NCBI RefSeq assembly: GCF_030936135.1
Contig: NC_082632.1
Location: forward strand, 291,161-355,160
DNA length: 64,000 bases
Reading direction: 5' to 3'
DNA from: Gavia stellata
Taxonomy: Eukaryota > Chordata > Aves > Gaviiformes > Gaviidae
This document shows, piece after piece, positions 31,680 through 62,821 of this stretch (the first letter of the stretch is position 1; every line of letters begins with the position of its first letter). The position numbers were made by a program, and so were the translations under genes. Under the pieces are notes generated by a model. That model worked only from the letters and a program-made list of their open reading frames with translations, was not told where the DNA came from and made no database searches.

Positions 31680-31880
31680 CCGGCTCCCCGGCTGCGCTGG
31701 GCTCCGCGCTCCGCTCCGCGCCGCTCCGCCGCCCGTCTGCCGGGCGGGAGGGGCGGGGCCGCGCCTGCGCGGGGCGAAGGGGGCGGGGCCGCGCCTGCGC
31801 CAAGCGAGGCGGAGAGCGAGGACGCCTGCGTCTTTCCCCCGCGGGGGGCGGACTGCTCATGCGCGGCGACGCGGGGCGGG
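31680..31880 (-). promoter_or_regulatory. CpG-rich TRIM promoter with GC boxes
   Basis: Immediately upstream of the TRIM start codon lies a CpG-dense block with two copies of GGGGGCGGGGCCGCGCCTGC (GC boxes plus NRF1-like GCCTGCGC) and a CATGCGCGG word at 31859. No TATA box is visible. The position and motifs fit a broad CpG-island promoter for the minus-strand gene. Confidence 0.55.
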
Positions 31881-31902
31881 GCCCGCAGACCCGCTTGGGG
31901 GG

Positions 31903-32520
31903 GCTATAGGGGGCGGGGGGGTGTCCCTATAGGGTGCTGGGGGAGCCCGGATGTCCGAGTCCCTATAGGGTGTTGGGGGCGGGGTGGATGCATCGGTGCC
32001 TATAGGGTGCTGGGAGGGGGGTGTGTCCCTATAGGGTGCTGGGGGAGCCCGGATGTCTGGGTCCCTATAGGGTGCTGGGGGGAGAGTGGACGCATCGGTG
32101 CCTATAGGGTGCTGGGAGGGGGGTATGTCACTATAGGGTGCTGGGGGAGCCCGAATGTCTGGGTCCCTATAGGGTGTTGGGGAGAGAGTGGATGCATCGG
32201 TGCCTATAGGGTGCTGGGAGGGGGGGTGTGTCCCTATAGGGTGCTGGGGGAGCCCGAATGTCTGGGTCCCTATAGGATGTTGGGGGGGCATGGATGCATC
32301 GGTGCCTATAGGGTGCTGGGAGGGGGGGGTGTCCCTATAGGGTGCTGGGGGAGCCCGAATGTCTGGGTCCCTATAGGATGTTGGGGGGGCATGGATGCAT
32401 CGGTGCCTATAGGGTGCTGGGAGGGGGAGGTGTCCCTATAGGGTGCTGGGGGAGCCTGAATGTCTGGGTCCTTATAGGATGTTCCGAGGGGATGTATCGG
32501 TGCCTATAGGATGCTGAGGT
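31903..32520. repeat. Higher-order minisatellite, about 102-bp unit of three 34-bp subunits
   Basis: Each subunit contains CTATAGGGTGCTGGGGG. Three subunit types alternate in fixed order: one ending in AGCCCGAATGTCTGGG, one ending in GTGGATGCATCGG, one ending in GGGAGGGGGGTGTG. The AGCCC/AGCCT word starts at 31944, 32046, 32148, 32251, 32352 and 32453, a period of 101-103 bases. The last part (32480-32520) is degenerate. The period is nearly divisible by three, which keeps frames open on both strands. Confidence 0.95.
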
Positions 32521-36267: not shown

Positions 36268-39097
36268 ATGGAGCCGTACGTGATGCTGGACCCACGACAG
36301 CGAGCGCTGTATCGCGACGTGATGCAGGAGAGCTACGAGACGCTGATGGCACTGGGTGAGGAGCCTACCCCTCCCGCAGCAGAAAATTTGGGGTGAATGG
36401 AGGATCCGGCTTGCTGGATCCTCACATCTTCATGCAAGGGGTGCTGGGATCAAGGCACTGCTGGAGAGGGCAGACCCTCTTGACCCATGTTGCTCATTCC
36501 CCCTCTCTTTTCCAGAATTCCCCGTTTCCAAGCCCGATCTGCTGTCCCGCCTGGACCACGGGGATGAACCTACAGCCCTGGATCTCCACGTGCCCAGGGA
36601 CACCCTGGCCGCAGGTGAGCCTCCGATCGCACCTTGACCACAGTGGGGAAAAAGCCTGGGTTCGGCTCCTGCAAGCGTGGAGGGCTTCCTCCCCTGCCAA
36701 CCTCTCCCCAAAATGGGCAACCCCCACCTGCAAGCCCTGGTTTAGCCATGGCATGGAAGAGAGATGCTGGGGAGGAGAGACTGTAATGCCGGAGGGATGT
36801 CCTGGCCAAAATGGAAATGCCGGACCGCCCTCCTAGACAGCCGCGTTTCTGGAGTGGCCCACAGAGGTGCAGTGGAGCTGCTGGTGGATTAATTACCATG
36901 TCCATGTTGGTGGCAGAGAGGAGCGATGAGGATCAGAGATGCCTCTGTTAGAGATGCTTACCTGGAGGGGTGTGTGAAATAAAAAAAGGAGAAGGAATCC
37001 CTCCTTGCTTTCCTTTTCCTACCACCTTCCCATCTTCCCAGCCCCAGGAGAGACGATGTCTCCTGCCTGGGTTGTGTCTGTCTCTCTTTGTGCCCCACAG
37101 AGGATGGAGCAGGAGCGGCGCAGGAACCCCTTCGAGAAGAAGCTGCTGAGAAAGAGCCCGAAGTGGTGAAACCTGCAGGCGAGGAGCAACCTTCAAGCCC
37201 CACCGACGCCGGGGCAAAGGCGGGCAGGAGCGGGGGACCAGGAGAGACGGCCACACGCCTGGGCGAGAGCCAACCCAGCAACACGTGCAGCGAGTGCGGG
37301 AAGAGCTTCAGCCACAAGTCAGCCCTGGTGAAGCACCAAAAGATCCACACCGGCGACCGCCCACACGAGTGCCCTGACTGCGGCAAGTGCTTCATCCAAC
37401 GCTCGGACCTCACCATCCACCAGCGGGTCCATACGGGCGAGCGGCCCTACGCCTGCCCCGACTGTGGGCGCCGCTTCAGCGTCAGCTCCTCCTTGCTCAC
37501 TCACCAGCGTACCCATGCGCCCGGCGGGGAGAAACCCAACCGTTGCCCCCAGTGCGGCCGCAGCTTTGCTGATCCGGGAGCCCTTGACCGGCACCAGAAG
37601 AGCCACCTGGGTGGGAAACCCTACGAGTGTGGCGTGTGTGGGAAAGCCTTTGCCTGGAGCTCCCACCTCGAGCGGCATCGGCGCATCCACACCGGTGAGA
37701 AGCCCTTCCAGTGCACCGAATGCGGGCGAGCCTTCGCCTGGAGCTCCCACCTCGACCGCCACATGCGCACCCACGCTGCTGCCGCTGCCGCCGCCTCCGA
37801 GGACGAGGAGGACGGGGAGGCGGAGGAAGAGCCCCCGCCACCCCCCCAGAAATGCGCCGACTGCGGCAAGCGCCTCAACCACCAGACAGACCCCCAGCGC
37901 TTCAAGCACAAGGGCACCCAGACGCCGCCGGCCGGTGCCGAGCCCACTGGCAGCCCCCCGCGGCCCTACCGCTGCGAGCAGTGCGGCAAATGCTTTGGCC
38001 AGAGCTCCAACCTCCTCAAGCACCAACGCGTCCACACCGGCGAGCGGCCGTACCCCTGCCCGGATTGCAAACGCTGCTTCCGCTGGGGCTCAGCGCTGGC
38101 CAAGCACCAGCGCACCCATGCCCGAGAGCAGCAAGCCAGTGACACCACCAAAGCCGTGCCAGCAGCCACCGAGGAAGCCAGCGTTGAAGGAGGCGGCAAA
38201 CCCTACCCGTGCGGGGCGTGCGGGAAGAGTTTCGGGTGGGTCTCACACCTGGAGCGCCATCGCCGCATCCACACGGGGGAGAAGCCCTTCCGCTGCGGGG
38301 AATGCGGGCGGGCGTTCGCCGTCAGCTCCCACCTGGAACGGCACCGCCGGGTACACACCGGCGAGCGGCCCTACCGCTGCGGCGAGTGCGGGAAGAGCTT
38401 CGCCGTCAGCTCCACCTTGCTGGCTCATCGTCGCACCCATGCCGCCCAGCCCGGCCGGCCCCACGCCTGCCCCGAGTGTGGCAAGGGTTTTAGCACGCCG
38501 GCCAGCTTGGAGCGGCACCGGCGCCTTCACCGGGGTGAGAAACCCTACCAGTGCAGCGTCTGTGGCAAAGGCTTTGCCTGGAGCTCCCACTACGACCGGC
38601 ACCGGCTCACCCACACTGGTGAGAAACCCTTCTCCTGCGCCCACTGCGGCAAATGCTTTGGCCGCAGCTCCCACCGCAACCGGCACCAGCGTGCCCACAC
38701 GCAGGGCGGCCCGGAGAAGCGGCACGTCTGTCCCGAATGCGGCAAAGCCTTCGGCCTCGGCACGGCCCTGGCGGCTCACCAGCGACTGCATGCCACAGCC
38801 GCCGGCACCGGGAGCCGCAGCACCCTCTCCTTGCTGCCGCCTGCATGGTGGGAGGGCGAGAGGCGAGCGGGGACGCCCACCCCCTCCGAGCTCTGGCCCG
38901 AAGAGCCCAGCTCCGTTTTCCAGCAGCACCCTGTGCCTTCCTCCTCCTCTTCCTCCTCCGCAGCCCCCAGGGGCTGGGCTGCCAAGGCTCTCCTGCCCCC
39001 CACCATGGCATGGAGGCCTGGGGAGGGGGACACCCTGCAAAGCGATGCCTCTGCCCCCCAGGAGCCCTGGGCTTCCCTGCCTCCCCCCAGCTCCTGA
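36268..39097 (+). CDS. KRAB-like C2H2 zinc-finger protein (first of three)
   Basis: Three coding exons: 36268-36355, 36516-36614, 37101-39097, all phase 1 junctions; 727 aa. Exon 1 encodes a shortened KRAB A box starting MEPYVMLDPRQRALYRDVMQ, exon 2 a KRAB B box (FPVSKPDLLSRLDHGDEP). The last exon has an acidic/Ala-rich spacer and 16 C2H2 units, of which 15 are canonical with TGEKP-type linkers. The seventh (starting CADCGKRLNHQ) lacks the proper histidines and follows a poly-Ala, Glu-rich and poly-Pro insert. A Ser/Pro-rich tail of about 100 residues follows. Likely a nuclear sequence-specific DNA-binding protein; the target is unknown. The KRAB A box lacks the N-terminal DV residues needed for strong KAP1 binding in mammals, so KAP1 repression is doubtful. 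Repeated finger cores such as AWSSHLERH suggest recent internal duplication. Comparable genes in chicken MHC-B are called Bzfp. Confidence 0.9.
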
Positions 39098-40324: not shown

Positions 40325-42209
40325 TCAGGGCTCCTCGCCGCTGCAGGCTCCAGGTGGCTCCACCAGCCCCACGGTGCCATGGGGCTTCTCCCCTGCCAGC
40401 CGGGTCCTGGAGAGGGGCAGCGGTTGAGGGGCAAGGGGGAAAGCGGCCTTGGGGAGGTGGCTACGGCGGTGTTTGGTGAGGTGGGAGCTCTGGCTGAAGG
40501 CTTCGCCGCACTCAGGGCACTCGTAGGGCTTCTCGCCGGTGTGGACGCGGTGGTGCCGCTCGAGGTGGGATGCCCAAGCGAAGCCCTTGCCGCACTCGCT
40601 GCAAGTGTAGCTCTTCTGGGCGGCGTGACCCCGCTGATGGGCAAGGAAGGGGGGAGCCTCGCCGAAACGTTTGCCGCAGTCGCCGCATTTGTAGGGTCTG
40701 TCAGGGGAGTGGGTTTTGCGGTGCTGGAGGAGGTGAGCTTTTTGGGCAAAGCGCTCGCCGCAGCTGCCGCAGGGGAAGGGGCGTTCGCCCGTGTGCACCC
40801 GCCGGTGCCGCTCCAGGTGGGATGCCCAGACAAAGCCCTTCCCGCAATCAGCGCAACGGTGGGCACGCTCCCGCCGGTGACACCGCTGATGCCGCGCCAG
40901 CGCCGGCCCAGCTCGGAAAAGCTTGCCGCAGTCGCCGCAGCGCAGGGCTTTCTTGCCCAGGTGGGTGCGGCGGTGACGGGCCAGGTCGGAGCTCTGGCAG
41001 AAGGTCTTGCCGCAAGCCGGGCAGCGGTGGGGCCGCTCGCCGGTGTGGCTGCGGCGGTGCTTGGCGAGGTGTGAGCCTTGGCTGAAGGCTTCACCACACT
41101 CAGCACAGCGGTAGGGCTTCTCACCGGTGTGCACCCGCCGGTGCCGGGCGAGGTGGGATGCCCAAACGAATCCCTTGCCGCAGTCGCTGCACTTGTGGGG
41201 TTTCTCGGCAGCGTGGCCCCGGCCGTGTGCAGCCAGCTCGGCGGCGCCGGCAAAGCGCTTGCCACAGTCACCGCACTTGTGCGGCCGGTCGCTGGCATGG
41301 GTACGGCGATGCTGGAGGAGGTGGGAGCTCTGGCTGTAAGTCTCGCCACACTCGGGGCAGCTGAAAGGCCGCTCGCCAGTGTGCACCCGCCGGTGCCGCT
41401 CCAAGTGCGAAGCCCACGGGAAGCTCTTGCCACAGTCGGCGCAGCCAAACGGTCTCTCCCTTGCTGGTCCCTTGCTGGCTGCCCCACATAGGGGCTTGGC
41501 ACAGTCCAGTTTGGGTACTGCCGCTGCTTTAGGCATCTTGGCAGTGCCGTGCGGCACGGCTTTATCCGGGCGCTTCGTTTTCCGCCTGTTGGAGCCGAGG
41601 GTCTTCTCCCTCTCCGGGCTGTGGGACGAGCAGGCTTCGAGCTCCTCGCAGCTCTCCTCTGCCGCTCCTTCCTCCGCTGCTTTTTCACTCACCAGTCCCT
41701 GTGCTGCTGGGGAGATGGGAAAAGGAGAAAAAGGGGAGAGCGTGGCCTCGACCGGAGCAGGGGGTGGCATTTAAATCGATGGAGCAAGGAACAGAATTCC
41801 CCTGAAAAGCTTGGTCTCCCAGAGAGGAGGAAGAGAGATGCGATGGGACACCTGATCCCAATTTGAACTGGGAATGTGGAAATGCTGAGCGCACCCCCCT
41901 ATTGCCCGTATTTCCAATTAAAAAATAAAAATGCAGAGAAATCAGTAACATTTCCCTGCAGAAAATTCGAGGAGAGGGATGGTATTTGGGGAAATCCCCC
42001 CTGAAACCTGCCTGGATTCTTCCTCCCCTCTTCCCATCCCGCTTGCGATCCCTTTGCTTCCCTGCCAGAGACAGGAAAAAAAAGAGCAAGAAAAAAAGAG
42101 GATTTTTTTCTGTTTGCTTACCAAGTGACATCAGCGTTTCGTAGCTTTCCTGCATCACATCCCTGTACAGGGCCTTCTGCCGTGGGTCCAGCATCACCCA
42201 CGGCTCCAT
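40325..42209 (-). CDS. KRAB-like C2H2 zinc-finger protein (second of three)
   Basis: Two coding exons: 42209-42122 and 41706-40325, joined in phase 1; 489 aa. Exon 1 is nearly identical in design to that of the neighbouring gene (MEPWVMLDPRQKALYRDVMQ), an N-terminally shortened KRAB A box. No KRAB B exon is visible between them. The second exon has an acidic leader and a Lys/Arg patch, then 12 intact C2H2 fingers with TGEKP-type linkers, from CADCGKSFPWASHL to CPECGEAFSQSSHL. Fingers alternate WASHLERH and SQSSHL types, which suggests duplication of finger pairs. The acceptor is a CAGCAG tandem, so transcripts may differ by one codon. It is convergent with the first zinc-finger gene. Nuclear DNA-binding role inferred from the family; target unknown. 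Confidence 0.9.
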
Positions 42210-47636: not shown

Positions 47637-47936
47637 CACCGGTGCATGCACACCGGGGAGAAGCCATTTCGGTGCGGGGAGTGCGGGTGGCAGTACAGCC
47701 AGCGGGCTCATCTCACCACCCACCAGCGAGTCCACACCGGCGAGCGACCCTACGTCTGCGGCGATTGCGGGAAGGGCTTCAATGTCAACTCATCCCTCAC
47801 CAAACACCGGTGGGTGCACACCGGGGAGAAGCCCTACCGCTGCCCTGAGTGTGGGAAGAGCTTCAGCCAGAGCTCCAACGTCATCACCCACCGGTGGCTC
47901 CACCATGGCCACAGGGTGCACCAGCTCCATGCATGA
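47637..47936 (+). pseudogene. Out-of-reach 3' fingers of the third zinc-finger gene
   Basis: Directly after the TGA the frame stays open for 99 codons. It completes finger 10 (HRCMH) and adds three fingers: [28 protein letters not shown] and [14 protein letters not shown]. It then ends in TGA at 47934-47936. All linkers are intact. A single C-to-T change (CGA to TGA, a CpG site) explains the break; sequencing error, polymorphism or readthrough are alternatives. Confidence 0.8.
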
Positions 47937-48532
47937 GTGGCTCCAGCTCCCACACCGTGCTGGTGAAGCCCAGTAATGCCAGCCCAGCCAGGAGCTCTTC
48001 TCCAGAGGCTGGAAGTCAGCCAGGACTCTGGTTATCTTGGCACACGTGGGAGAGGGAAGAAAGATCTGTGTATCTGGGGCTATGACGGGAAGGATAGGGA
48101 CCAAGCGTGGCCACCATCAGCAGAAAACACCAACTCAGGGTGAGGTTCCTCCTAATCCACTGGAGGAGAGAAAAAACACCCCTCGTTCTTCCCAACCAAA
48201 TTAGGACAGGGTATCTCCTGCTCCCACCTTGCCCAAACACAACAAAAAGGACCTTTGTTTTTCCTCGCTGCTCCAAACTCTCTCCACACGGAGACATTTG
48301 ATACAAGGTGCCTGAGTGCTGTTTCATCTCCCATCTCAGGCACCTTGCGTCCCAGAGCTGCACAGACACCGGTTTTAACGTCGGGGCTTTTTTTGCATTT
48401 GAGCTGTAAGGTCGTTGGGTTTTGTCTGGAGAACATGGCTAGGGAGCTCCAGACAACACCGGGCTTTGGTGTGGTACCCACCTTGAACCTTGGACAAAGT
48501 AACACGCCAAACCCATAAGTGCAGACCTTACA

Positions 48533-48538
48533 AATAAA
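48533..48538 (+). terminator. Poly(A) signal of the third zinc-finger gene
   Basis: AATAAA about 600 bases after the distal stop codon at 47936 and 900 after the premature one. It is the only clear plus-strand signal in the stretch. Confidence 0.6.
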
Positions 48539-48985
48539 GAGAATCAGTGGCAGAAAACATCATTTCTCTCTCCTACTCAGTACCAAGCCAAGAGGAGCGT
48601 AACTTCAGAGGCCATCGCGCTGTTTCCAACCATGGCAAACCTCTCCAGTGGATCTCCAACCTCCCCAGACACTAGGTGTGGTCTGAGATGAGGATGGAAT
48701 CTCCTGATGGGGAGCAGCCTTTCGCTGCTGAGGTCTCAGCTCACAGCTGGATAGAGGTCTTCAACGAGGTCAAGGTGGACTTTGGTGATCTCCCACCAGC
48801 ATTGCAGGGGGCTGAGTCATGTAGTCTTACATGGGCAGGATGGTGAAGATGCTCCCATCCAGGAGCCGCCCTCCAAATTACCTCCTTCAGGGACACGTGG
48901 GTGCTGGGGTGTTGGTGGGACGCCAGGTTTGGTGGTCATCTTTACAGGAATGATATTGAATCAGGCGACTGAGAAAGGCTCTGAG

Positions 48986-48991
48986 TTTATT
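48986..48991 (-). terminator. Poly(A) signal of the first H2B-like gene
   Basis: AATAAA on the minus strand about 90 bases beyond the stop at 49080. I saw no histone stem-loop of the GGCTCTTTTCAGAGCC type, so the mRNA is probably polyadenylated. Confidence 0.55.
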
Positions 48992-49079
48992 CTTTTTTCT
49001 CCTCTTTTCTTCTTCTCCCAGGCATGCAACGAGGGAGACAAGGAAAGATATCCATGGCAAGAGGACAGGCCCTTCTTAG

Positions 49080-49499
49080 TCAGTTCATGCAAGAAGATCC
49101 GCTGGGGATGGAGGAGGAAAAACACACTCCACCTTCACCTTTCAGAACCTTATCCACAGCAGCCTGCAACTCCGAGGTACCGATGAAGGACCCCCGGCGC
49201 CGCCTCCTCCGGCAGTCCGCCTCGGTGACCAACCCCTTGCAAAGGACACCCATGGAGATGTTCATCAGCCTCTTCGCCTTCACCGACATGCGCCTGGTCG
49301 GTGGTGTCAGCTGGCTCAGCAGCCTGGAGATGTACCTGTTGCAGGATCCCTTCCTGAACCAGCCGCTTAATCCCTTCGGAGCTGGTTTCCATCGCGCAAC
49401 CTGAGCCGGCGACCTTCTCCACTTAAGCAGAGGCTTCATCCACCGGACTTTCTGCTTCCTCCTCCAGGTTCTTCCTCGTCTCTTGGTGGCTGCAGCCAT
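49080..49499 (-). CDS. Highly divergent histone H2B-like protein 1
   Basis: Single-exon frame of 139 aa. Residues 1-55 are Lys/Arg/Trp-rich ([17 protein letters not shown]) and unlike a canonical H2B tail. From about residue 56 an H2B-type fold can be aligned: [16 protein letters not shown] over canonical [27 protein letters not shown] over [30 protein letters not shown] over ITSREIQTAVRLLL, then GE. A run of six arginines replaces the basic HYNKRST loop. The canonical alpha-C helix is missing; a short Ser-rich tail follows. Upstream lie CCAAT (49608-49612) and an octamer-like ATTTGAAT (49576-49583), the layout of H2B promoters. Probably a replication-independent, perhaps tissue-restricted, variant; function is inferred. 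It could also be a decaying copy, but the frame is intact. Confidence 0.65.
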   Translation of the reverse strand: [139 protein letters not shown]

Positions 49500-49575
49500 T
49501 GGGTCTCCTCGAGACTCAGTGCTCCTCCCTACAAAGGTGTCCCACCAGAGCCCTGGACCTCACCTAGCTGGACAT

Positions 49576-49612
49576 ATTCAAATGAGGGATTGACAATGCA
49601 GCCCGGGATTGG
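49576..49612 (-). promoter_or_regulatory. CCAAT box plus degenerate octamer of H2B-like gene 1
   Basis: Read on the minus strand: GGCCAAT, then 24 bases, then CCCTCATTTGAAT. The octamer ATTTGCAT has one change. It lies 77 bases from the start codon. The arrangement and the flanking word CCTCATTTG match those at the second H2B-like gene. Confidence 0.6.
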
Positions 49613-50438
49613 CCAGCTGCAGCAAAGCCTTTATGAGGCAACTTGTCCTCATCCAGAATTTGCATAAGGATTTTTTGCCTGAAAAGCAGGGAGTTAAACC
49701 AAAAGAACATAACCCTTTTTTTGACTTGAAAATCCCCAAAAGTTTTCTCCAAAACCACCTTTCCTTGCGGAGAAAGAGTCAGAAACAACTTGATGTCGAT
49801 TCTCCCTGGGTTAATTATCGCACTGGCTTAATGAAGGCGCACGGTCAGCATGCGGAGGGAAGCTTTTCAGAAGGATCTGGAGCTAAACCTGGAAATTTCA
49901 GGCTTTGCCTTGGCAGCTGGAGAAACGTTGGGGAAAAAAAAACCTTCAGTGGAGTCTGCTGGGCTTTGCAGAGCGATGGGGGAGACTTCCAAGAGCGCAA
50001 TTAATGAGGAGAAAACGGTCAATTTGGCTATGGAGTAAAAACAGAAAGTAAAACTATGTCGGTGTTAAATTAAATTAAATCCGGGATTTTACTAGCGCCA
50101 CGAGCGTGTGAGCGTGCCTCTTCTTTTTCCGTCTTTCTCCTAATTTTTGTTTTTAGAGGCGATGACCAAATTGCAGCCACGATTGCGGCGTGTTTCAGCG
50201 TAAAACGGGGCTGCTCCCGCTCTTCCGAAAAAGCGAATCCTGAGCGGGCAACGGAGACCACATGGACCAGGGATGGAGCGATGGAAGCAGAGGAGCAGAA
50301 AAGAGCCAGGAGAGGGTTTTGCCACCGCAAAAAATAAAGTCGCTGCAAATTTGGAGGGTTATTGAAGAGGCAGGAAAGGTCAAGATGTGGCAGGATTAAT
50401 TGTCGAGGATGAGAAGGGTGAGGAAGGTTTTTGACAGT

Positions 50439-50546
50439 GTCAGGATGGCCGAGTGGTCTAAGGCGCCAGACTCAAGGCTTCGCTTTCCCTACCCGGGGTT
50501 TTCTGGTCTCCAAATGGAGGCGTGGGTTCAAATCCCACTTCTGACA
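50439..50546 (+). tRNA. tRNA-Leu (CAA) with 24-base intron
   Basis: The sequence begins GTCAGGATGGCCGAGTGG and ends TTCAAATCCCACTTCTGACA, folding into a normal acceptor stem, long variable arm and T arm. The anticodon CAA is at 50473-50475. The intron 50477-50500 sits one base after the anticodon, the usual place in vertebrate tRNA-Leu(CAA). A and B box promoters are internal, and a T-run for polymerase III termination begins at 50551. Confidence 0.97.
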
Positions 50547-50566
50547 CAGCTTTTTCCTTCTAAAAA

Positions 50567-50682
50567 CTAACATTTTTGTCATTTTTAATCATTTTTTTTA
50601 AAATAATACCCACTAACATTTTTATCATTTTTTTAAAATAATACCCACTAACATTTTTATCTTTTTTTTTAAATAATACCCC
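50567..50682. repeat. AT-rich tandem repeat, three copies, after tRNA-Leu
   Basis: Units of about 35-46 bases with CTAACATTTTTATCATTTTT and AAATAATACCCA. The first copy has an internal insertion. It begins just 20 bases after the tRNA and contains many T-runs. Confidence 0.85.
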
Positions 50683-50986
50683 CATAATCCCCGCGCCTGA
50701 GTTGGAGAATCGTCTTTTTCCCTTCCCCCCCAAAAAAAACCAACTTATTCCTGTAACCGTCTCCACCGTTCGCCGCTTGCGAAGTGCGCCCACGCGTGGA
50801 GCAAAAGCACGGGGAGGAGGGGAAGGGAGGGGAAGCGGGCTGCACGCTGCCCCGCGGGTGTCTGGGTTGCGGGGAGAGGCGGGGGCAGCACAGACACCGG
50901 CCCCGGGGGGTCCGTCCCTGTCCCGTGTCCGTCCCCCCGTGGAGCGGCCACGCGTGGGGCCGCGGCAATGAACTGCGCTCAGCGCT

Positions 50987-51058
50987 TCCCTGGTGGTCTA
51001 GTGGTTAGGATTCGGCGCTCTCACCGCCGCGGCCCGGGTTCGATTCCCGGTCAGGGAA
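50987..51058 (+). tRNA. tRNA-Glu (CTC)
   Basis: A 72-base cloverleaf starting TCCCTGGTGGTCTAGTGG and ending in TTCGATTCCCGGTCAGGGAA. The anticodon loop CTCTCAC gives anticodon CTC at 51020-51022. No intron. A T-run follows at 51069. It matches the strongly conserved vertebrate tRNA-Glu. Confidence 0.98.
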
Positions 51059-51567
51059 ACTCCATCATTTTTCCCCATCCTCAACAATTTCCTCTTTTTT
51101 TTTTTTTCCCCTTCTGATGATACCAATAATAGTTTTTTTCGCAGCAAACTCAACCCTGCAAGCACACACACAGTGACGGCAAAACGCCACCGTTATTCTA
51201 AAAGCCCTTGCTGCGCAGCATGTGGCCAGGCTGAGCTTGCTTCTTAAAAGTCACTGCTTTAACCGTCATGGGTAATAGCAGCTTAACGAGGGATACGTTT
51301 AGCAGGACAGGGATATCACCACCACTATCCTAGGGTAATTTAGGGGACTTTTTCCCCTGCTCGCAGCAATTCCCATCATCTGCTGGTGATTTAAATACAT
51401 ATATTCAAGTGTATTTAACCACCTACTTGCAGCAAGGAGGGCATGCAAGCCCATCTTTCTCTAAGGTAAAAACCACCTACAGATTCTCACTAACAAAACA
51501 CCAACCCCTCATCATCCTTTCCTGCAAAAGAAACCCCTCACACCACCAAATGCAGCCGCTCTCAGGC

Positions 51568-51573
51568 TTTATT
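51568..51573 (-). terminator. Poly(A) signal of the second H2B-like gene
   Basis: AATAAA on the minus strand about 195 bases beyond the stop at 51766, again pointing to a polyadenylated rather than stem-loop histone mRNA. Confidence 0.6.
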
Positions 51574-51765
51574 GCGATGCCGTGTTGACTATTTCATTCG
51601 ACAAACTCCCCACTCCAGCTGGTGCATTGCTCAGGTCTTCCCAAACCAGTGGTCGCACAGGTCTTTTCAGCGATTGGGGTGGTTTGGTCTTTTAATTCCT
51701 CTCCCTTGGGCTTTAGGTCTTGCTTGCCACCCATCCGAACCTCAAGGGAAGGAGGATGTTTTCTT

Positions 51766-52206
51766 CTAGTGCCTGTTTCTTGAGACCGCGGTGGGCAGGT
51801 GCCTCCACCTCCTCTTCGGCACCACGCGCCGCAGGGCGGCTTGCACGTGCGCGGGGCTGACGAGGGGATCGTGGCTCTGCCTCCGCAGCCGCTCAGCCTC
51901 GCTCGACACCTGCTTGTAGACGTCCTCCACGAAGCTGATCATGAGCCCCTTCGCCTGGTGGGAGAGGAACCAGCTGTCTCGCTTCATCTGGTTGAGCCTC
52001 TTGGCCTTGGAGTAGAAGGAACGTTTCAAAGCCCTTTTCCTCTGCTTCTGCACAGGTTGACGCTTCGCCTGGCCCCAGTGCTTCCTCTGCTTGGCCAGAG
52101 ATCTCCTGCCATGGCTCTTCTGTCTACTTCCCTGCTGGGATCTCCTTCTGTGCCAGGATCTCCTTTCCTGCTGGGATCTCCTCTTTCTTCCCCTTGGAGA
52201 TGCCAT
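51766..52206 (-). CDS. Highly divergent histone H2B-like protein 2
   Basis: Single-exon frame of 146 aa. The first 60 residues are a protamine-like Arg/Lys/Gln/Ser tail with repeated RRSQQ words. The fold region aligns clearly with H2B: QAKGLMISFVEDVYKQVSSE over [20 protein letters not shown], then EAERL over EASRL and LVSPAHVQAALRRVVP over ITSREIQTAVRLLLP. After that, canonical GELAKHAVSEGTKAV is replaced by basic KRRWRHLP, so the two glutamates H2B gives to the nucleosome acidic patch are absent. Upstream: CCAAT (52316-52320), a perfect octamer ATTTGCAT (52285-52292) and a TATA-like CATAAA (52270-52275). This is the classic H2B promoter order. Such variants elsewhere (for example H2B.W) are germline proteins; expression here is unknown. 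Confidence 0.8.
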   Translation of the reverse strand: MASPRGRKRRSQQERRSWHRRRSQQGSRQKSHGRRSLAKQRKHWGQAKRQPVQKQRKRALKRSFYSKAKRLNQMKRDSWFLSHQAKGLMISFVEDVYKQVSSEAERLRRQSHDPLVSPAHVQAALRRVVPKRRWRHLPTAVSRNRH

Positions 52207-52269
52207 AGCTCAACCTTGTCCCCGCACTGCCCGGACCCCTCAATCCTACAAACACCCCACCCTCCCTAC

Positions 52270-52320
52270 TTTATGCAAGCGAGCATGCAAATGAGGGGCA
52301 GCTCTGAGCCCTACCATTGG
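52270..52320 (-). promoter_or_regulatory. H2B-type promoter: CCAAT, octamer, TATA-like
   Basis: On the minus strand: TTGGCCAATGG, 23 bases, CCCTCATTTGCATG with a perfect octamer, then GCATAAAG. The octamer lies 79 bases from the start codon. An Oct-1 octamer near a TATA box is the specific mark of H2B promoters. Confidence 0.75.
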
Positions 52321-55300
52321 CCAAGTGAACAATGCCCCCCCCCAGTTCACAGTGGGTAGAATCCTGGCCAGTGCTGGTCGCTGGGGTCCCTCTTGGCCAG
52401 GGCAACCAGGCGTGATGGGTGCCTGCAAGCTTTGAAGACATGCAGGACCCCTCACCTCTCCAGGATGCTTGCCTTCCAAATGGAAATCTTCCACCCAACC
52501 TAAAAACTAGCATTTATTTCTCGGAGTATCGCCCCCATCTCAAAAGTTTTGTCCCACAGTTGCACGACCGAGCCCCGTACGTGCAACACGTGTCCTGGGA
52601 GTCTTCTGGGCGAGCAGGAAACTAATGACAAGAGAATCCTTTGAAAGAACATCTTTCCTCATCAGAAACTGCCTGCACATCTCAGACCTGTGTCTGCCAG
52701 CTCAAAGACTCATTCTGGCTAATTATTTAGTTAACAAATCCACCCAGATACACCCCGGGTTTTTCCCTCCCCATGCTTTACATACAGAGCTCATTTTCAT
52801 ATCTGCGTGTAAATGCTCACACATACGTGTAACTCCTATGTTTCTTTCAAGTTCCTCCATGCACCTTCAAAAACGCAGTTGATGTCCCACACCAACATCT
52901 ACGTGCTCTGGTTCTGGCGGACCAAACCCTGACTTCTTTTCTCCTCCCTTCATTAAGAAAAAAAAACCATAAACCAGAAGACGATTATTTGGGAGCAAAA
53001 AATTGTCCCTTCTTCCCCCGTCTCACGCTGGCCGATTCAGTTTGGTTTTCATCCCTCCCGCTGTCCTCCTCCAAGCTTCATGTCATAATCGGTTTCATGT
53101 GGAAACTCAGTTTCCAGTAATCTTCAAGGAAGCAGCAGACAGGAGCAGGAACATGGGAGGAACTCCTTTTGCAATTGCTTATACTCAAACAGTAAACCCT
53201 GTCATTTGAGGTTGATCCTAAAGCAACTTGTTAAGACACGCTTTAATCTAGCTCCTATCAAAACAAGACGAAACAAACTGCCCTCTCTCCAAAATCTCCA
53301 TCTGTCCTGGGATCATGTGGACATATTGGTTTCATCATGTAATCCCCAAATCCCCCAAGAAGTATCATTGCTTCATACGAAGAGATAATACGTGTCACCG
53401 CATTTTCAGTGTAGACACCCACAGATATCAGGAAACCAACCTGGTAATCGCAAGCCAGTAAAAAGAATCAGGTACAAAACCTTTTTTTTTTTTCAGAAAA
53501 ATGATGCCTTTGCCTTTTCCAAATGTTAAACATGAATCAAACTAGTGGGTTTTCTGAAACGGAGATGTGCTCTGGAACAAAAAACGCAAGAAAAATATGC
53601 TATCCTTCAGTTTTTCTCAGAAGGAAAGTTTCCACAGACAGTCACCCAATTTTAATGAGGACAAAGGGGTGGGCATCATGCCGAAAGCTGGTGAACTGGA
53701 TGCAAAGAATCAGTTCCTAATTTTGCCTTGATGCAGGCAGATATGCGCCCTGGAATTAAAAAACATCACTGTTTTGGAAGAGACTGACCCTATCAATGGC
53801 ACAGCCAAGGTGGCGTTAAAAGCGCAATGAACCTCCTTGGCCAATCCCAGCAGCAACACTGAGACTATGGTTTTGGGGAAGACTAAATTGCCCCAGGACT
53901 GGGCTGCCTGCAGGAGCAGGCGGAAGAAAAGGGTCTACAAAATCCCCACCTTGCTGTCGAAACACACCCACACTCCATCAACAAGCACCTTGCTGGGCAA
54001 GACCCACATCTTGGCTGCTTCCGAGAAGACCCATTGAACGGAGCACCGCAAAACCCCAATGTCTATGTCACAAGTCCACCAGAACCAAGAGATCCCACAG
54101 ATGCAAATCTATTCAGTGGTTCCTACTGGGTGGCAAAGATTAAAACCCCCGTCATCAGTGGTTAAGCAATTTGTAAGCACCATTCCCCAAAGACCAGAAT
54201 CACCCAGAGGGAACTTAATTTGTAACTTCCTGAGAGCATGACTTCACGGAAGGGGTAACACATGGGACATCCATGCAATGCTCACAGTCCTGACCTTGCC
54301 ATGGTTCTGCAATCCACTCTTCTGGGGCATTATTTAAAACACTAGGCCAATGTAGCATCACGGGTGGGCACCACTACCTGATCTTTCCAAAGCCATACAT
54401 CCCTTGCCGTGATTCTCCAAAACTCTACTTAAACTTTGCGAGTTGGACTCTATGATCCTTAGGTGTTTCCCTTCCACCTGGAGATATTTTATCATTAAAC
54501 TTAGTAAAACCCCACAATATTGTTGAGACTTGAATGGGATAAAGCATGGTGATGAGGTTGGCCCTGCACAGGAGACTCGAGCTGTTGCAATTAAAGAACT
54601 AAAGGAAGTAGTACTGAAAGAAGACAGAAAAAAAAATAATACCACCAAAGCTGCACTGTGCTCTCAACCTTGCTGTCTGGATGGCCAGGGAAGACACCCA
54701 AACATCGAAAGACCAAACTTTTAATAGCACAACGGAATGAGATTGCTTCTGCTTTGATGCACGTAGCTCTGGGCTCCAACGCAAGGAGAACTGAAAGCAT
54801 TACAGGAAAAAAAACCTAAAGGAGGATTTCAATAAGCAAATAGCACTAAGAAGAACCAATTGCTACTGAGGCTTGCAAAACCGCATCCAGCAAAACGTTT
54901 TTCAGGGGAAACTCCTTCCATGAGGCTGGCGTCTGCCTTGGCGCTGAGATCACACCTCAGGGTCCAGAGGTCTGGGAAGTACCAACATTGAGTTTCATTT
55001 CCTCAATCAAATCCACAAATCGTCTGATTAACTGAAAAAGACAGTCTTTAGGCATAAGGCAAAGGATAGAAGGGACAAGAAAGTTTGGAGGGGAAGGGTA
55101 GTTTGTGGTGGGTTTATTACTCTTTTTTTTCTAGGAGCAGAGCAGCCAAGGTGCCTACACAGAGTTGAGTATGTCCATATGGTGGGCAAAACATGGTCGA
55201 CCAGCCAAGGGATGGTTCCTCAGATTGGTTTATGGTGCTTTGGTAGGTCAAAGTTCTCCATCCTGCAAAAACGCTGGTACAACTCACCCAGTTTTTGCCA

Positions 55301-55903: not shown

Positions 55904-58900
55904 ATGGCTAGGATCGGTGAGTGACTCTCCCCTGAATCTTGAGCTCTCTTGCTGTTGTTTTTCCGGTTTTCTTTCCTATTCAGTGCCCAGGGTGTTTTGG
56001 GATTTTTCGCCCATCTGGTGGAACACCTGCCTTTTCTGTCGCCTCCTGACAGCATAACCACAAACTTCCCTTTCTTCAGTTAGGGTATTCCATGATCACC
56101 TGGAGCTCAACTTTGCAGCGCTGTGGGCAGTGGGAGACCTCCATCGTAAGTTTGGGGAGTGGGATGTTCCTAGTTGTGCAGGGAGAGATGGAAACACAGG
56201 CAGAAGCTCAATGTCCAGGGACCTTCCTGGAGAACAGCTCCTTGCATCAGGTTTGTGGTTTCACAAATGGATGTAGAGAGCAAAATAAACTCCCCGTGAT
56301 CCAGGGAGAAGCAGTTAACGAACTTCTGTGCCACCTGGACACCCACAAGTCTATGGGACCTGATGGCATCCACCCAAGGGTGCTGAAGGAGCTGGTGGAG
56401 GAGCTTGCAAAGACGCTCTCCATCATTTATCAACAATCCTGGTTAACAGGGGAGGTACCAGACAACTGGAGGCTTCCCAACGTGATGCCCATCTACAAGA
56501 AGGGCCAGAAGGAGGATCCGGGGAACTACAGCCCTGTCAGCCTGACCTCGGTGCCAGGGAAGATTATGGAGATGTTCATCTTGAGGGCGCGTGTTGATGT
56601 AGCATTGTGGGACATGGTTTAATGGGCATGATGGTGTGGGGTTGATGGTTGGACTTGATGATCTTACAGGTCTTTCCCAACCTTAGTGATTCTGTGATTC
56701 ACCACATGTACCCACCACACAAGAAGGTCTGATGGAAGATGGAGATCCATCAGGCGTTTCCAAGAGCTGGTCCCAATGTACTTGCTCTCATCCCACAGAG
56801 AGCCTGATCTCCAAAAAGGATCTCCTTCATCTTCCACATGGTCCATAGGTCTCTGGGGTTGCCACGTTGGGTGAGATGAGGGCAGCAAGACTGGCTGCTG
56901 GCTCTACACCACTATGAACCCCACACATACCAAAAACAACTCAAGGCAGCACCCATGGTCCTCAAGAAAGATTAGGGCAGCATCAGCGTTGGGTCAGGAA
57001 GGTTGATGCAGCTTTGTCAACATGATGCCTCTTTCTGCCATGCTTTGAAGAAGGCAACCCTGCTGTTAACAGGCTAATTGTAGCAGATTCTTTCTAATTA
57101 TTTTTTACCGCCACAGTGTCTTCAGGAAGCTGGATCAGCTCTACAGGCTGTAGAAAGACCTGCTTTTGGGAGCTGGACTTGGGTCTCTCAAAAATCACCT
57201 GCACGACAACAGCTCTGGGGTTTATTTGCAGCAGGTGCACTTCGACCCAGGTTGTCTGCAGATCTGGGGCTGTTCCAGCAAAAGCAGTGACTCCCCAGGA
57301 GTAAAAATTACCCAAGGTGTGGCTTCAAAGGCTTTTTTTTTCTTCTTCCCTGGAAGGAAACTGGCAGTATTTGGGGGAAGAAAAAGAAAATGAAAGTTGC
57401 CCTGTAGTTATTCTAGAGAACAGAAACCAAAGATAGAAAAATCCCAGGGTGGTTTCTGTTCAAACTTCCTTTCCCTGTGAAAATATTAATATCGTTGTTG
57501 TGTCTGTTCCGGTAGAAATGGTTATTCTGCATGGGCTGCAGTCTGCCTGCTGTTCCCTATAGGTACCTCAGAAACAAAATCACTTTAAATACAGAGAGAA
57601 GTTCCATCACCTATCGTCATCTATCTAGACTGTCCATCTTTCTATGTAATATTGTCTCCATCTATTCTGTCCATCTTTCCGTACAACATCGTCTCCTCCC
57701 TTCACCCTTCTATCCACTGCATCAAAAATGCCAGGAATTACTGAGGTATGGAAAAGGGCAGCTGGGACAACAAGATTGCCTTAATTCTTTGCACGTGAAT
57801 GACATTAATTACCATTCTTCCTGATGGAGTCCTTTGAGCTTATTCAAAGGGGTCAAGCTCATTTTGGGAACGCACCACAGCAGCTGCACAAGAAGAACGT
57901 GAGTATGAAAAAACCCAATCATCTATGGGCTTGATTTCTCCTTAAAAAGATAAATCGCATTCACCAACACCGCTTGACATCTGGCTGCGGTCATGAGAGA
58001 CTTGCTGATGCCATGGATTTCATAATCATGCCAGCCGATTTGAAAACAGATTTGCTGGATGTTCCTCTTCGGGGTTTGGACACCAACGTACTCGGAGCCA
58101 GTTTGTGCTGTCACCTCCCTCCTGGGCTGTCAGGAATGAACTTGCATGCTGATTGCCGAGTGCCTTCGTTGCATTATTTTCTTCTCTTCTTTTCTTCTCT
58201 CCTCAGTCCTCTTCCAAATACTGCTGCTAGTAGGTCTCCTAAGTGCAAAGAGGTTTTCAAGTTTCCCTGAATATTGCCTTCATGACAAAGACTATGAGGA
58301 ACTGCTGAAGATTGTCAAACATGGGCTAGAACGTGCAACTCATCCAGCAAACGTGGTCATCGTCGGTGCAGGAATAAGTGGGCTTACCGCAGCAAAGTTG
58401 CTCCGAGATGCCGGCCACACGGTAAGTAGTTGCATGAGAGCCCTGAGTGCCGTTGGGTCTTGTTTTCCTACACTAAAGATTTTCCAGCATGGAGAGGGAG
58501 AAGGAAAGGCAAGGGAGTGGATTGCAGTGGTGGGAGAAGGAAGGAAAAGCAATTGGGCTCCAGTAATTTAATCTGACTTAGGCATGATTTTCAAAACCAC
58601 AGGCATGGACAGGAAGGGATAAGGGGAAGCTCTAAGCAAAGCAAGTTGTTTTAGGTGCTCTGCAAACGAAAGTAAGCAGCAAAGGCAAAAAGATGCAGTC
58701 TTCTTTCTCTGTCCCTAAGGGTTTTTGAGATCAGGCAGAGCTACAGCTGCCCTGGGACAGCCTTGGAGGCAGCACTGCTGCGAGTGGGAGGTTGGACTAG
58801 ACCCCTCCAGAGGCACCTCCAGCCTCAACTTCTACAATTCTCCAACTTGTTGGAACTCGCAGCCCAACAGTGACGTTCATTGCTGTAGATCAACCACCAC

Positions 58901-61900
58901 AAGACTCACAAGCCCTTCAAACCCTGCCTTGTTAAGGCGGCAGGTAGTCTGGGGGTTTCAAAACTGTGTTGACCATCCCAAGGTTCTAGACAAAATTCAA
59001 ACCCATGAGTTTCAAAGAAGGTTTCAAAGGCACGGAGGGACAGGTTGGTGCCTTCCTCTGGCTGTTTTCAAAACCCCGTTTCATCCTTTCCAGCACAGGG
59101 AGCATCTGAACCAACACTAGGACCCTCTCATCAGAGAGTAGGTGTCCAAATGTGTCACAGAAGTTAGGAATTGAGAAACTGCCCTGTAGGTAGAGGGATC
59201 TTGGCCAATACAGAGAGGGGTTTGGATCTACAGATGGTTCATTTGCCACCTGGAGGGGACCTGTCCAACCCCATGGGCCATAAATGTTGACTGCCAAAGC
59301 GCCTGTGAACTTGCTTTGTAGGTTGTTTGCTTAAAATAGTAATTGCCTGAACATCTGCAAACTCCACCCCATCCCTGTTTTTAGGTTACCATTCTGGAAA
59401 CAAGCAATCAGGTCGGTGGGCGGATCAGGACGTACCGACCAGAGGGACAGGACTGGTACGTGGAGTTGGGACCCATGCGCCTGCCAGGCAAGCACAGGTA
59501 AGACAACATCCTACTTCATGGCCATGACCAGATGAGGAACCAGCCCGTTTTGAGGAGCAAGGCTGTGGTTTGAGAAGGGGCTGAGGACTTGGACGTGGGT
59601 GTAGCACAGCAGGAGGAAGGAGCTTTCTGCCCCATCTCTCCCCAAGAGCTTAGCATCTGCATAAAAGGGACAAAAAACACATGGTCACCTGCATTTCAGT
59701 TGGGAGAATGAAAGAAGACTTCTTATCTCAGTGTCATGTCCGTGCATGATCAGACCTCAATTTTGGAAGTCACAACATCAGCAGATGGATGAATTTCCAT
59801 CAGCTCTGATGGAAATGGCCTTCCAGCCTGGGCTCTCTGAGAGGGTGAAGTCAAACAAGGTTCAGTCATCAGCCAAAATGCTGCGGGAAGAGGCTGTAGG
59901 TGAGTCACCAACCACACCACATGCCAAGGAAAAGGGTCAGAGCCATAGGGAACCCCAGCCTCCTACTTCAACAAGGCATTGCTCTTACTCCCGATTACAT
60001 CCTTGTGCAAGCACTAGCTGGAGAGAGCATAAGCCGAAGGGCTCCTTTCTCCATAGCACCGTAGTTGCCGCACTGAGCTGGGAGCAGGCAGGACAACTTC
60101 AAGCAGCAAAAACTAGAGACGGCGGTGCCTTAAATAGCCGCAGTCTCCACTCACAAGCCAAAATAATATGTGGCTACACCAACATAGTCGATGGGAAAGT
60201 GTCTTTTTATGCTTCTAATGTTTTGGTGGCAGGGTTTTTGAGTCTGGTTGTTTGCAAGCGCTTGTCCCCATGTGCTGTCCTCTTTTCTAGGCTTGTCCGT
60301 GAATTCATTAAGCAGTTTCACCTGAAGCTAAACCCATTCATCCAGACAGATGACAACGCCTGGTACTTTCTGAACGGCACTCGGACAAGAGCTGAGGAAG
60401 TGAATAGAAACCCCAACATCCTAAACTACACAGTAAAACCATTGGAGAGAGGCAAGAGTGCCAGCCAGCTTTATAGAGAAGCAATAAACAAGGTACATGC
60501 CCACAGGGAAGGGATGCTACCTTCCAGCAATGTTGCTCATCCAAGAGACATTGAAGCTATTTCCTCTGAGCTGTGGTGGACCCTCGCCTGCACAATGGGT
60601 TGAGGAACACTCAACAGTGAGTTGAGGAAGAGTAGGATCCTTTCAGAATGAAAAGCAGAAAGGCTCATTCAGAAACTAGGGCAGCTGATTGCAAAACCCT
60701 CTTTATACGCAAGACCTCTTTTCTCTGGAACAGATTCACCAAGACTTGGATGAAGCAGAAAATGCCACACCAAGGCATAACTTCCCAAAACTTGAAGCCC
60801 AAGCAGCAGGATCCACTAGCTCTAGCTCAGCTCCAGGGGTGCCCAAACCCCAAGACTGAAGACCCCAGATGAATCCTAACAGAATTTGGGGGAACACTTT
60901 GGGAAATGCACTTTTTCCTCATGAACATATCAATGTTTCCTCTCCAGGCTTACGTGGCGTTCCAGACTACAGACTGCAAGAAATATCTAGCTAAATATGA
61001 CTCCTACTCCACCAAGGTAAAGGGCTGGGGCTTGAGAGTAAATTTAATCCCCCTACCAATGATAAACCCCCATCCCTGCTTTGAGAAAGGATCCGAGTCA
61101 CTCTAGTCTCTTCCTCTGTTGACACTTTTGGATGCCCTTTCCCTAATCAATGCTGCCTTCTACTTAAAATGCTGAGAAAGGAGCAAGCATGACCCTGATG
61201 GAGTTGCTAGAGCAGTATCATCATCTGGAAATAGGAGAGAAGCAGCAGTGACTGGAAATGCTCTAGAAAGTCATCCAAATTAGCCACATGCCTTCATCAT
61301 GGGTCTCTTGATCAGACACGATGAAGTATCAAGCACTGGAGAGGATTTGCTGAGAAATCCACTGCATTTTCATGTGATCCAGCTGTCTCAGAGTGGGTAC
61401 ACCAAGCCACAAATCCCTTATTCATTTATCTCCAGAACTTCTGTCACGCTAAACCAGAGGAGATGATCTCCTGCAAAAAGCTACAAGAGCTGCATAAAAA
61501 CAAGGTTCTGGTCCAGGCTTTAAGCAGATCAGGAGCAGGAACAAGGCAGCGGGGCACGACTTTTGGCTTGGGATATAAAGGGGATACATGCACTGACTGA
61601 GATAATAACATCAGGCTACGTCTTCTTCCTGGTTTTTCTAGGAGTATTTGATTAAAGAAGGAAACCTAAGCCGAGGAGCAGTTCAGATGATTGGTGACTT
61701 GTTGAACGAGGATTCTGGATTTTATCTGTCCTTCCTTGCCTCGCTGTGGGATTTTGATGTCTTCTCTGATGAGAGGTAAGTTGATGTCTCTTATGGCAAA
61801 CCCCATTTTGTGCTGGTCCACAGCATTCCACCAGAAGAGAAAATTTCAGTGGCGTTTAGATGTCTGAACGGGAATCACTCCTGACACAAAGGGCCACCAA

Positions 61901-62821
61901 GCTCTGTTAGCATCTCTAGAAGAGGTCAGGTTTTACAGTTCCTAAACCCCAATGTCCTTCCCTCACCTCCTGCTTCTTCCTTTCAGTTTTGATGAAATCA
62001 CAGGGGGATTTGACCAACTGCCCAAAGCCTTCCACAAAGCGTTGTCTAATGTCATCCATTTCAATTGCACGGTGGAGAAAATCATGACCAAGGGAAACAA
62101 AGTCCATGTGTTTTACCACGCGCCGAACACCCTGGCCCAAAACGTAACTGCAGATTACGTCCTTGTCACGTCTACCGCCAAAGCCACCAGGCACATCCAA
62201 TTCCTGCCACCGCTCTCTCCTCTGAAGACCCACGCCCTGCGCTCCATCCACTATGCAAGCGCCTCCAAAATAGTCTTGGCTTGCACCAAGAAGTTCTGGG
62301 AGAAGGATGGCATCCGAGGAGGACAGTCCATCACCGACCGCCCTTCCCGGTTTATCTACTACCCCAGCCACAACTTCTCCAGTGGGGTGGGCGTGATCCT
62401 GGCTTCCTACACCTGGAACGACGATGCTGAGTTTTTCCTGCCCCTCACAGATGAGAAGTGCCTGGATGTGGTCTTCCAAGACCTAGCCGATATCCACCAA
62501 GTGAGCAAGAAGTACCTGCAGTCCACCTGCAACCAGTACGTGATACAGAAGTGGCAGCTGGACAAATACTCCCTGGGGGCATTTGCTGCCTTCACCCCTT
62601 ACCAGTTCGTCGACTACTCGCAGGCTCTCTTCGAGCACGAGGGCAGGGTGCATTTTGCAGGAGAACACACAGCTCAGCCTCACGCCTGGATTGACACCTC
62701 CATGAAATCGGCCATCAGGGCTGCGAGCAACATCCACCACGACAGCATCGAAGCCCAGATGCTGAACGAGGAGGGGGAGCGGGAGCAAACAGGGACATTC
62801 TTCCAGAAGGAAGAACTCTGA
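55904..62821 (+). CDS. LAAO: L-amino-acid oxidase (secreted/ER FAD flavoenzyme, IL4I1/venom-LAAO family)
   Basis: Seven coding exons: 55904-55916, 58207-58421, 59385-59497, 60291-60492, 60948-61016, 61642-61775, 61987-62821; phases match and give 526 aa. The split signal peptide reads [18 protein letters not shown]. The FAD-binding GAGISG lies at residues 58-63, followed by [13 protein letters not shown]. Substrate-site wording LGPMRLP contains the expected Arg. Later landmarks are [49 protein letters not shown] and the C-terminal FAD motif [17 protein letters not shown]. The family deaminates L-amino acids (often aromatic ones or Leu) to keto acids with release of ammonia and hydrogen peroxide, which is antimicrobial and immunomodulatory. 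Several N-glycosylation sequons fit secretion. The C-terminus is KEEL, which fits the ER-retention pattern. Exon 1 was chosen because it follows a TATA box and restores a perfect signal peptide; an alternative ATG at 58146 would read through the acceptor. Confidence 0.92.
56290..56700 (+). repeat. CR1 LINE fragment with reverse-transcriptase segment, in LAAO intron 1
   Basis: 56310-56590 translates to the start of the CR1 reverse transcriptase ([53 protein letters not shown]). It then jumps to a CR1 3' end (TTGGACTTGATGATCTTACA, ending TTCTGTGATTC). So the element is 5'-truncated and internally deleted. The remaining frame is open. Confidence 0.85.
57600..57722. repeat. Two-copy imperfect tandem repeat in LAAO intron 1
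   Basis: CTGTCCATCTTTCTATGTAA and CTGTCCATCTTTCCGTACAA begin two units of about 42 bases each that continue through CTCC-rich sequence. Confidence 0.6.
58735..58858 (+). repeat. Diverged CR1 LINE tail in LAAO intron 2
   Basis: GAGGTTGGACTAGACCCCTC, then a CAGAGGCACCTCCAGCC word and TCTACAATTCTCC, match the CR1 3' end wording in plus orientation. The upstream part is degenerate. Confidence 0.65.

What the first reader, a model, noticed from the sequence alone, without database searches (positions are those of the whole stretch)
49080..52320. A pair of very divergent histone H2B-like genes with conserved H2B promoter geometry
Seen: two single-exon minus-strand frames (49499-49080 and 52206-51766) whose C-terminal halves align with the H2B histone fold but whose tails are Arg/Lys-rich and unrelated to canonical H2B. 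Both have CCAAT, then 24 or 23 bases, then CCCTCATTTG[C/A]AT, then 79 or 77 bases to the start codon. Both have poly(A) signals. Established: an octamer next to TATA and CCAAT is the hallmark of H2B promoters, and H2B variants with basic tails occur in the germline. Inference: an ancient tandem pair of replication-independent H2B variants, possibly germline-specific and possibly undescribed, kept inside an MHC-like region.
Basis: partly seen in the sequence, partly recalled or inferred. Interest (0 to 1): 0.9.

Follow-up and report, generated by a model that had tools for sequence, protein, structure and literature searches.

The report
Divergent bird H2B histone gene pair
Two neighbouring bird genes next to the MHC make unusual, strongly positive relatives of histone H2B; one copy is named in the galliform MHC map, but I found no account of the pair, its age or its odd protein anatomy, and it probably packages DNA in germ cells.

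Summary
Two intact single-exon minus-strand frames, A (49499-49080) and B (52206-51766), encode divergent H2B histones: about 29% identical to human H2B in the histone fold, yet matching H2B in sequence and profile searches and above every shuffle. Both are conserved. A has relatives in ostrich, kiwi and turtles; B in stork, crane, gull, duck, parrot, rhea and kiwi. The tree separates A (with turtles) from B; equal contig lengths suggest the pair is linked in kiwi and crane too. Synteny (zinc-finger genes, histone, L-amino-acid oxidase) identifies the locus as galliform MHC-B gene 44G24.1, 'histone H2B-like', dN/dS 0.28 (PMC5941149). So the locus is not new. What ten searches did not find in print is the pair, its age and its anatomy: long, basic tails, a longer L1 loop, an altered alpha-C end without H2B E113 or K120. 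Promoter elements are confirmed with corrected spacings; no histone 3' stem-loop was found. Germline function is inferred: I had no expression data, no structure prediction and no DNA of relatives.

The parts
49080..49499 (-). Gene A: 139-aa divergent H2B-like protein (type A, with relatives in ostrich, kiwi and turtles)
51766..52206 (-). Gene B: 146-aa divergent H2B-like protein (type B, found in several bird orders)
49576..49612 (-). Promoter of A: CCAAT, 19 bases, CCCTCATTTGAAT (imperfect octamer)
49658..49665 (+). Perfect octamer ATTTGCAT (ATGCAAAT on the gene strand) upstream of A
52285..52320 (-). Promoter of B: CCAAT, 18 bases, CCCTCATTTGCAT (perfect octamer); CATAAA follows at -69
48986..48991 (-). 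AATAAA poly(A) signal of A
   Evidence: read from sequence
51568..51573 (-). AATAAA poly(A) signal of B
   Evidence: read from sequence
40325..41770 (-). C2H2 zinc-finger ORF, by position and strand the counterpart of Bzfp1
   Evidence: order compared with the Mikado pheasant table
37088..39097 (+). C2H2 zinc-finger ORF, by position and strand the counterpart of Bzfp2
58146..62821 (+). L-amino-acid oxidase (LAAO/IL4I1) gene. The ORF at 61952-62821 is shown by homology; the one at 58146-58571 is assigned by an FAD-binding-like motif read by eye (no Pfam match at 1e-5)

Best explanation
A and B are two intact, old H2B-variant genes at the avian MHC-B 44G24.1 locus. Shown here: both match the H2B histone fold by sequence, both have conserved relatives in other birds, A also in turtles, and they form two separate clades. 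Inferred: each protein pairs with H2A and enters nucleosomes in place of H2B. Its long basic tail, richer in Arg (whole-protein R/(R+K) 0.62 in A and 0.67 in B, against 0.23-0.29 in four canonical H2Bs), neutralises more DNA charge. The altered alpha-C end lacks the acidic-patch residue E113 and the ubiquitin site K120; in B this end is basic. Together this would give nucleosomes that pack DNA, bind acidic-patch readers poorly and exchange easily. That suits germ cells, most likely spermatids before protamines load. The H2B-type promoter elements, poly(A) signals and missing stem-loop suggest polyadenylated mRNA made outside bulk S-phase histone supply.
For: H2B matches and shuffle control. 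Conservation: 27 proteins counting the two here. Clades A+turtle 98/96 and B 98/98. E76 kept in 27 of 27 rows; E113 in 0 of 27; K120 aligned in 1 of 27; E105 kept in 8 of 10 A rows, N in 3 of 3 turtle rows, R in 13 of 14 B rows (the C-terminal end is aligned loosely). Net charge of the N-tail +15 to +27 in A and B, +20 to +22 in turtles, +10 to +13 in canonical H2B (rows over 110 aa: A 9 of 10, B 12 of 14, turtles 3 of 3, canonical 4 of 4). Synteny and dN/dS 0.2762 for 44G24.1, Mikado pheasant against chicken. No histone stem-loop at gathering score or E<=10. In print, the five broadly present mammalian H2B variants are all expressed in the germline (PMC8857922, abstract and passages).
Against: No expression data were available. 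The tails are longer, not much denser in charge: +18 over 52 residues in A and +24 over 63 in B against +12 over 37 in human H2B, and the Arg share is as low as 0.40 in one turtle and 0.48-0.53 in several rows. Residues at octamer interfaces are changed: L80 and Y83 in A, Y83 in B, so the protein may not enter nucleosomes. The Pfam Histone cut-off is missed by both window proteins. A's promoter is only partly H2B-like, and the upstream regions are otherwise not alike. The published dN/dS is for one galliform gene whose type, A or B, I could not determine.
Confidence: 0.55

Rival explanations
1. Histone-fold proteins that no longer work in nucleosomes, like mammalian H2B.L (subH2B), for example in a perinuclear or cytoplasmic role in germ cells.
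For: Histone-fold identity to human H2B only about 29%; positions L80 and Y83 altered and the alpha-C end changed; H2B.L is reported to have an unusual role outside the nucleus (PMC8857922, passages).
Against: E76 is kept in 27 of 27 rows and the tails carry more positive charge, which favours DNA contact.
Confidence: 0.2
2. A cationic, histone-derived defence protein kept in the MHC for innate immunity.
For: Place among MHC-B immune genes; very basic, pI 11.9 and 12.0.
Against: No signal peptide noticed by eye (not tested). The fold is conserved better than the tail, bird A against turtle 0.59 against 0.33 (27 pairs). Other chromatin genes (CenpA, BRD2) also lie in MHC-B.
Confidence: 0.08
3. 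A slowly decaying relic: at least one of the two genes is a pseudogene in this bird.
For: High divergence; inconsistent annotation, for example 'possibly DAXX', function unknown, in a review (PMC4988538, passage); several relatives are fragments or carry odd ends.
Against: Both frames are open here and in distant birds; 22 of 51 core columns are invariant over 13 A and turtle rows, 16 of 51 over 14 B rows; dN/dS 0.2762 for the galliform gene.
Confidence: 0.07
4. Oocyte or early-embryo H2B variant rather than sperm, as for H2B.K and H2B.N. This overlaps with the germline part of the best explanation, so the odds do not add up to one.
For: H2B.K and H2B.N are mainly expressed in oocytes, and most H2B.N lack alpha-C (PMC8857922).
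Against: Arg-rich tails resemble sperm nuclear proteins (recalled knowledge); H2B.K and H2B.N have an intron, A and B none.
Confidence: 0.2

Closest known systems
44G24.1, 'histone H2B-like protein', galliform MHC-B (PMC5941149, Table 2; chicken map by Shiina et al. 2007, cited there, not held here)
   Same: Single exon, minus strand against IL4I1 (+), 408 bp, lying between Bzfp1 and IL4I1
   Different: One gene listed there, two here.
Mammalian H2B.W, H2B.L, H2B.N (PMC8857922)
   Same: Very divergent H2B fold, changed interfaces; most H2B.N also lose alpha-C (passages)
   Different: Reported to have arisen in mammals; H2B.N has an intron. None of their sequences was compared here.
H2B.K (bony vertebrates, chicken included; PMC8857922)
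   Same: Old vertebrate H2B variant present in birds
   Different: By that paper its fold is close to canonical H2B, it has an intron and slightly lower charge; A and B differ on all three.
Canonical replication-dependent H2B
   Same: Fold by sequence; CCAAT plus octamer elements in the promoter
   Different: About 29% identity in the fold, longer tail richer in Arg, one more residue in L1 in 26 of 27 rows, no E113, no 3' stem-loop found

Membership tests
H2B histone family | Significant sequence match to H2B over the histone fold | tested here: met
H2B histone family | Pfam Histone (PF00125) gathering score | tested here: not met
   B 16.7 of 26.4 bits, A none; 3 of 11 members match at E<=1
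H2B histone family | Histone-fold three-dimensional structure | not testable with these tools
   structure prediction switched off
Canonical replication-dependent H2B | 3' histone stem-loop | tested here: not met
   none at gathering score in the window or at E<=10 in 48400-52900
Canonical replication-dependent H2B | H2B promoter octamer with CCAAT and TATA (recalled definition) | tested here: inconclusive
   B: CCAAT, perfect octamer, CATAAA at -69. A: CCAAT, imperfect proximal octamer, perfect distal octamer, no match of three TATA-type patterns below the octamer
Canonical replication-dependent H2B | Ubiquitin site K120 and acidic-patch E113 (roles recalled) | tested here: not met
   K120 aligned in 1 of 27 rows, E113 in 0 of 27
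44G24.1 locus | Single-exon H2B-like gene between Bzfp1 and IL4I1/LAAO, on the strand opposite to IL4I1 | tested here: met
   one extra zinc-finger array and two tRNA genes lie in between here
44G24.1 locus | Sequence orthology with the chicken gene | not tested
   no galliform protein in the answers
Mammalian H2B.W/L/N | Shared ancestry or synteny | not tested
   PMC8857922 says these arose in mammals and finds only H2B.K at the shared place in chicken

The most novel reading that the evidence does not exclude
A bird-and-turtle class of H2B, split into two lineages at or before the bird-turtle divergence, builds an alternative nucleosome with a long, Arg-rich, protamine-like tail and without the H2B half of the acidic patch. 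It remodels germ-cell chromatin and has been kept beside the bird MHC since before living birds split; the A lineage would be over 200 million years old (age of the bird-turtle split recalled, no call).
Probability: 0.35. Interest if true: 0.75.

Novelty: new variant of a known kind. Interest (0 to 1): 0.5.

Why it matters
The H2B-variant survey that I read worked on mammals, with chicken as outgroup (PMC8857922). A second, independent-looking set in birds and turtles would show how often H2B is reinvented, and would add a natural nucleosome whose H2B side of the acidic patch is removed or reversed. It would also give a function to an unexplained gene of the chicken MHC map, a region studied for disease resistance.

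Tried and rejected
Promoter likeness through a recent duplication: rejected, since the upstream regions show no general similarity. 'Undescribed locus': rejected after finding 44G24.1. Canonical histone gene: rejected. Sisterhood of A and B: left open. Profiles of A and B match each other (hhalign probability 95.7, E 1e-8) and the extra L1 residue is shared by 26 of 27 rows (the 27th is a fragment that does not reach it; one of the 26, A_lgn11, lacks a residue nearby). But the fold identity of A to B (0.28) equals that of A to canonical H2B (0.28), the direct A-B score of 69 is only just above the best of 1000 shuffles (65 and 67), and with canonical H2B as the only outgroup the tree cannot decide. 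dN/dS of my own: not possible without DNA of relatives; scans of viral and genome contigs gave none. NCBIfam: no histone family.

Papers: 10 searches. The statement that pair, age and anatomy were not found in print rests on these, on open-access papers only. Seen: PMC5941149 passages and the whole of section 12; PMC8857922 abstract, passages and the whole of section 13; passages of PMC4988538, PMC9635633, PMC8813856 and PMC1794435; all others as search listings. Shiina et al. 2007 is not held under the DOI that I recalled.
Full report
What is there. Two open frames on the minus strand, A (49499-49080, 139 aa) and B (52206-51766, 146 aa), run from ATG to stop without an intron. Each C-terminal half matches histone H2B. 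For B the match is direct (about 1e-8 to single H2Bs). For A it is weak alone (3.7e-4 to the best single H2B) and clear with a family profile (7.6e-8); the B profile gives 1e-11. The best row in all four searches is a 188-residue chain that matches twice, so its E-values flatter the match. Pfam's Histone model does not reach its cut-off for either protein. Against human H2B, 0 of 1000 shuffles of each protein reach the real alignment score, and 0 of the 948 and 998 shuffles that phmmer reported reach the real bit score, so basic composition alone does not explain it.

Relatives. Three database searches returned, with the two proteins here, 27 distinct proteins. The last search scored only the 8000 candidates sharing most words, so absences mean little. 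Type A (10 rows): the window, ostrich, kiwi, a crane fragment and six unnamed sequences; three turtle proteins go with it. Type B (14 rows): the window, stork, crane, gull, mandarin duck, kakapo, rhea, kiwi and six unnamed sequences. No type B was found in turtles and no galliform protein was listed. The crane A fragment is named as a zinc-finger protein, which fits its neighbourhood.

Tree. On 74 columns and all 31 rows (27 plus four typed canonical H2Bs), A with turtles is one side of a branch at 98/96, B at 98/98 and canonical H2B at 99/98; A without turtles has only 83/80, and 16 of 28 inner branches are open. Kiwi has both types, so A and B were separate before kiwi split from the other birds; if the tree is right, they were separate by the bird-turtle split. 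Whether A and B are each other's closest relatives cannot be read from three groups. Their profiles do match, but direct similarity is low.

Place. The order in the window is a SPRY exon (-), a RING/B-box ORF (-), zinc fingers (+), zinc fingers (-), further zinc fingers (+), A (-), B (-), L-amino-acid oxidase (+). The Mikado pheasant MHC-B table gives TRIM7.2 (-), Bzfp2 (+), Bzfp1 (-), 44G24.1 'histone H2B-like' (-, one exon, 408 bp), IL4I1 (+). I take this as the same locus. That table reports dN/dS 0.2762 and 80.15% protein identity against chicken for 44G24.1, a ratio below 1 that fits purifying selection. It says that 27 of 38 genes had at least 1-fold RNA-seq coverage, without naming 44G24.1. 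A 2016 review calls 44G24 'possibly DAXX', function unknown.

Anatomy. In the fold, A and B are each about 29% identical to human H2B 1-J (0.288 over 66 columns, 0.292 over 65). Kept in 27 of 27 rows: S55 and E76. Changed: one more residue in loop L1 in 26 of 27 rows; R, Q, W or H in place of L80 and K, Q or R in place of Y83 in A; E, K or Q in place of Y83 in B; E113 in none; K120 aligned in 1 of 27; E105 kept in 8 of 10 A rows, N in 3 of 3 turtle rows, R in 13 of 14 B rows. The C-terminal end is hard to align, so the statements on E113 and K120 mean that no such residue stands at the aligned place. Tails carry +15 to +27 net charge in A and B against +10 to +13 in the four canonical proteins (short rows left out: A 9 of 10, B 12 of 14 counted). 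Much of this is length: +18 over 52 residues in A, +24 over 63 in B, +12 over 37 in human H2B. The share of Arg among Arg and Lys, over the whole protein, is 0.62 and 0.67 in A and B and 0.23-0.29 in the canonical four; over all 27 rows it runs from 0.40 (a turtle) to 0.85 (rhea B). What E76, L80, Y83, E105, E113 and K120 do in the nucleosome is recalled knowledge, not tested here.

Control elements. The CCAAT and CCCTCATTTG[A/C]AT pair is found twice and in none of 100 shuffles, with spacers of 19 and 18 and 76 and 78 bases to ATG. The octamer alone occurs five times in the window against 1.72 expected (4 of 100 shuffles reach five); two of the five lie upstream of these genes. The upstream regions are otherwise not alike. 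One frame upstream of A aligns with the N-terminal extension of unnamed protein P0014 (local score 93, against 25 and 20 in the other frames), so this stretch exists in another sequence too. No histone 3' stem-loop was found. TATA box, CCAAT box and Oct-1 sites are listed for human core histone promoters in PMC1794435 (passage).

How it works. The most likely mechanism is replacement of H2B in a germ-cell nucleosome that is more basic and has a changed surface; confidence 0.55. That they are functional H2B-family genes I hold at about 0.9. Sperm rather than egg is a weaker inference from the Arg-rich tails.

Novelty. The locus has a name and some relatives carry automatic H2B names, so this is not a new gene. 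The two-lineage bird and turtle class and its anatomy did not turn up in the ten searches made. The mammalian H2B survey queried chicken by tblastn with mammalian variants and reports only H2B.K at a shared place there, so it could have missed these.

Noticed in passing
50439-50546 (+) and 50986-51060 (+): Two tRNA genes lie between A and B: tRNA-Glu (CTC) and an intron-containing tRNA that reads as Leu (CAA) by eye. A table of the chicken region lists tRNA-Lys (two), Val and Leu.
   Followed up: partly
46566-47936 (+): A C2H2 zinc-finger array is interrupted by an in-frame stop at 47634-47636 and goes on in the same frame: a decayed gene or a sequence error. It is extra relative to the Mikado pheasant order.
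   Followed up: partly
41685-42209 (-): An ORF upstream of the Bzfp1-like zinc fingers holds a KRAB-like stretch by eye (recalled motif).
   Followed up: no
56092-56622 (+): An ORF resembling a CR1-type LINE reverse transcriptase fragment by eye; no Pfam match at 1e-5.
   Followed up: no
31857-32441: Repeated short peptide units in the ORFs of both strands suggest a tandem repeat near the TRIM-type ORF; not run through the repeat finder.
   Followed up: no
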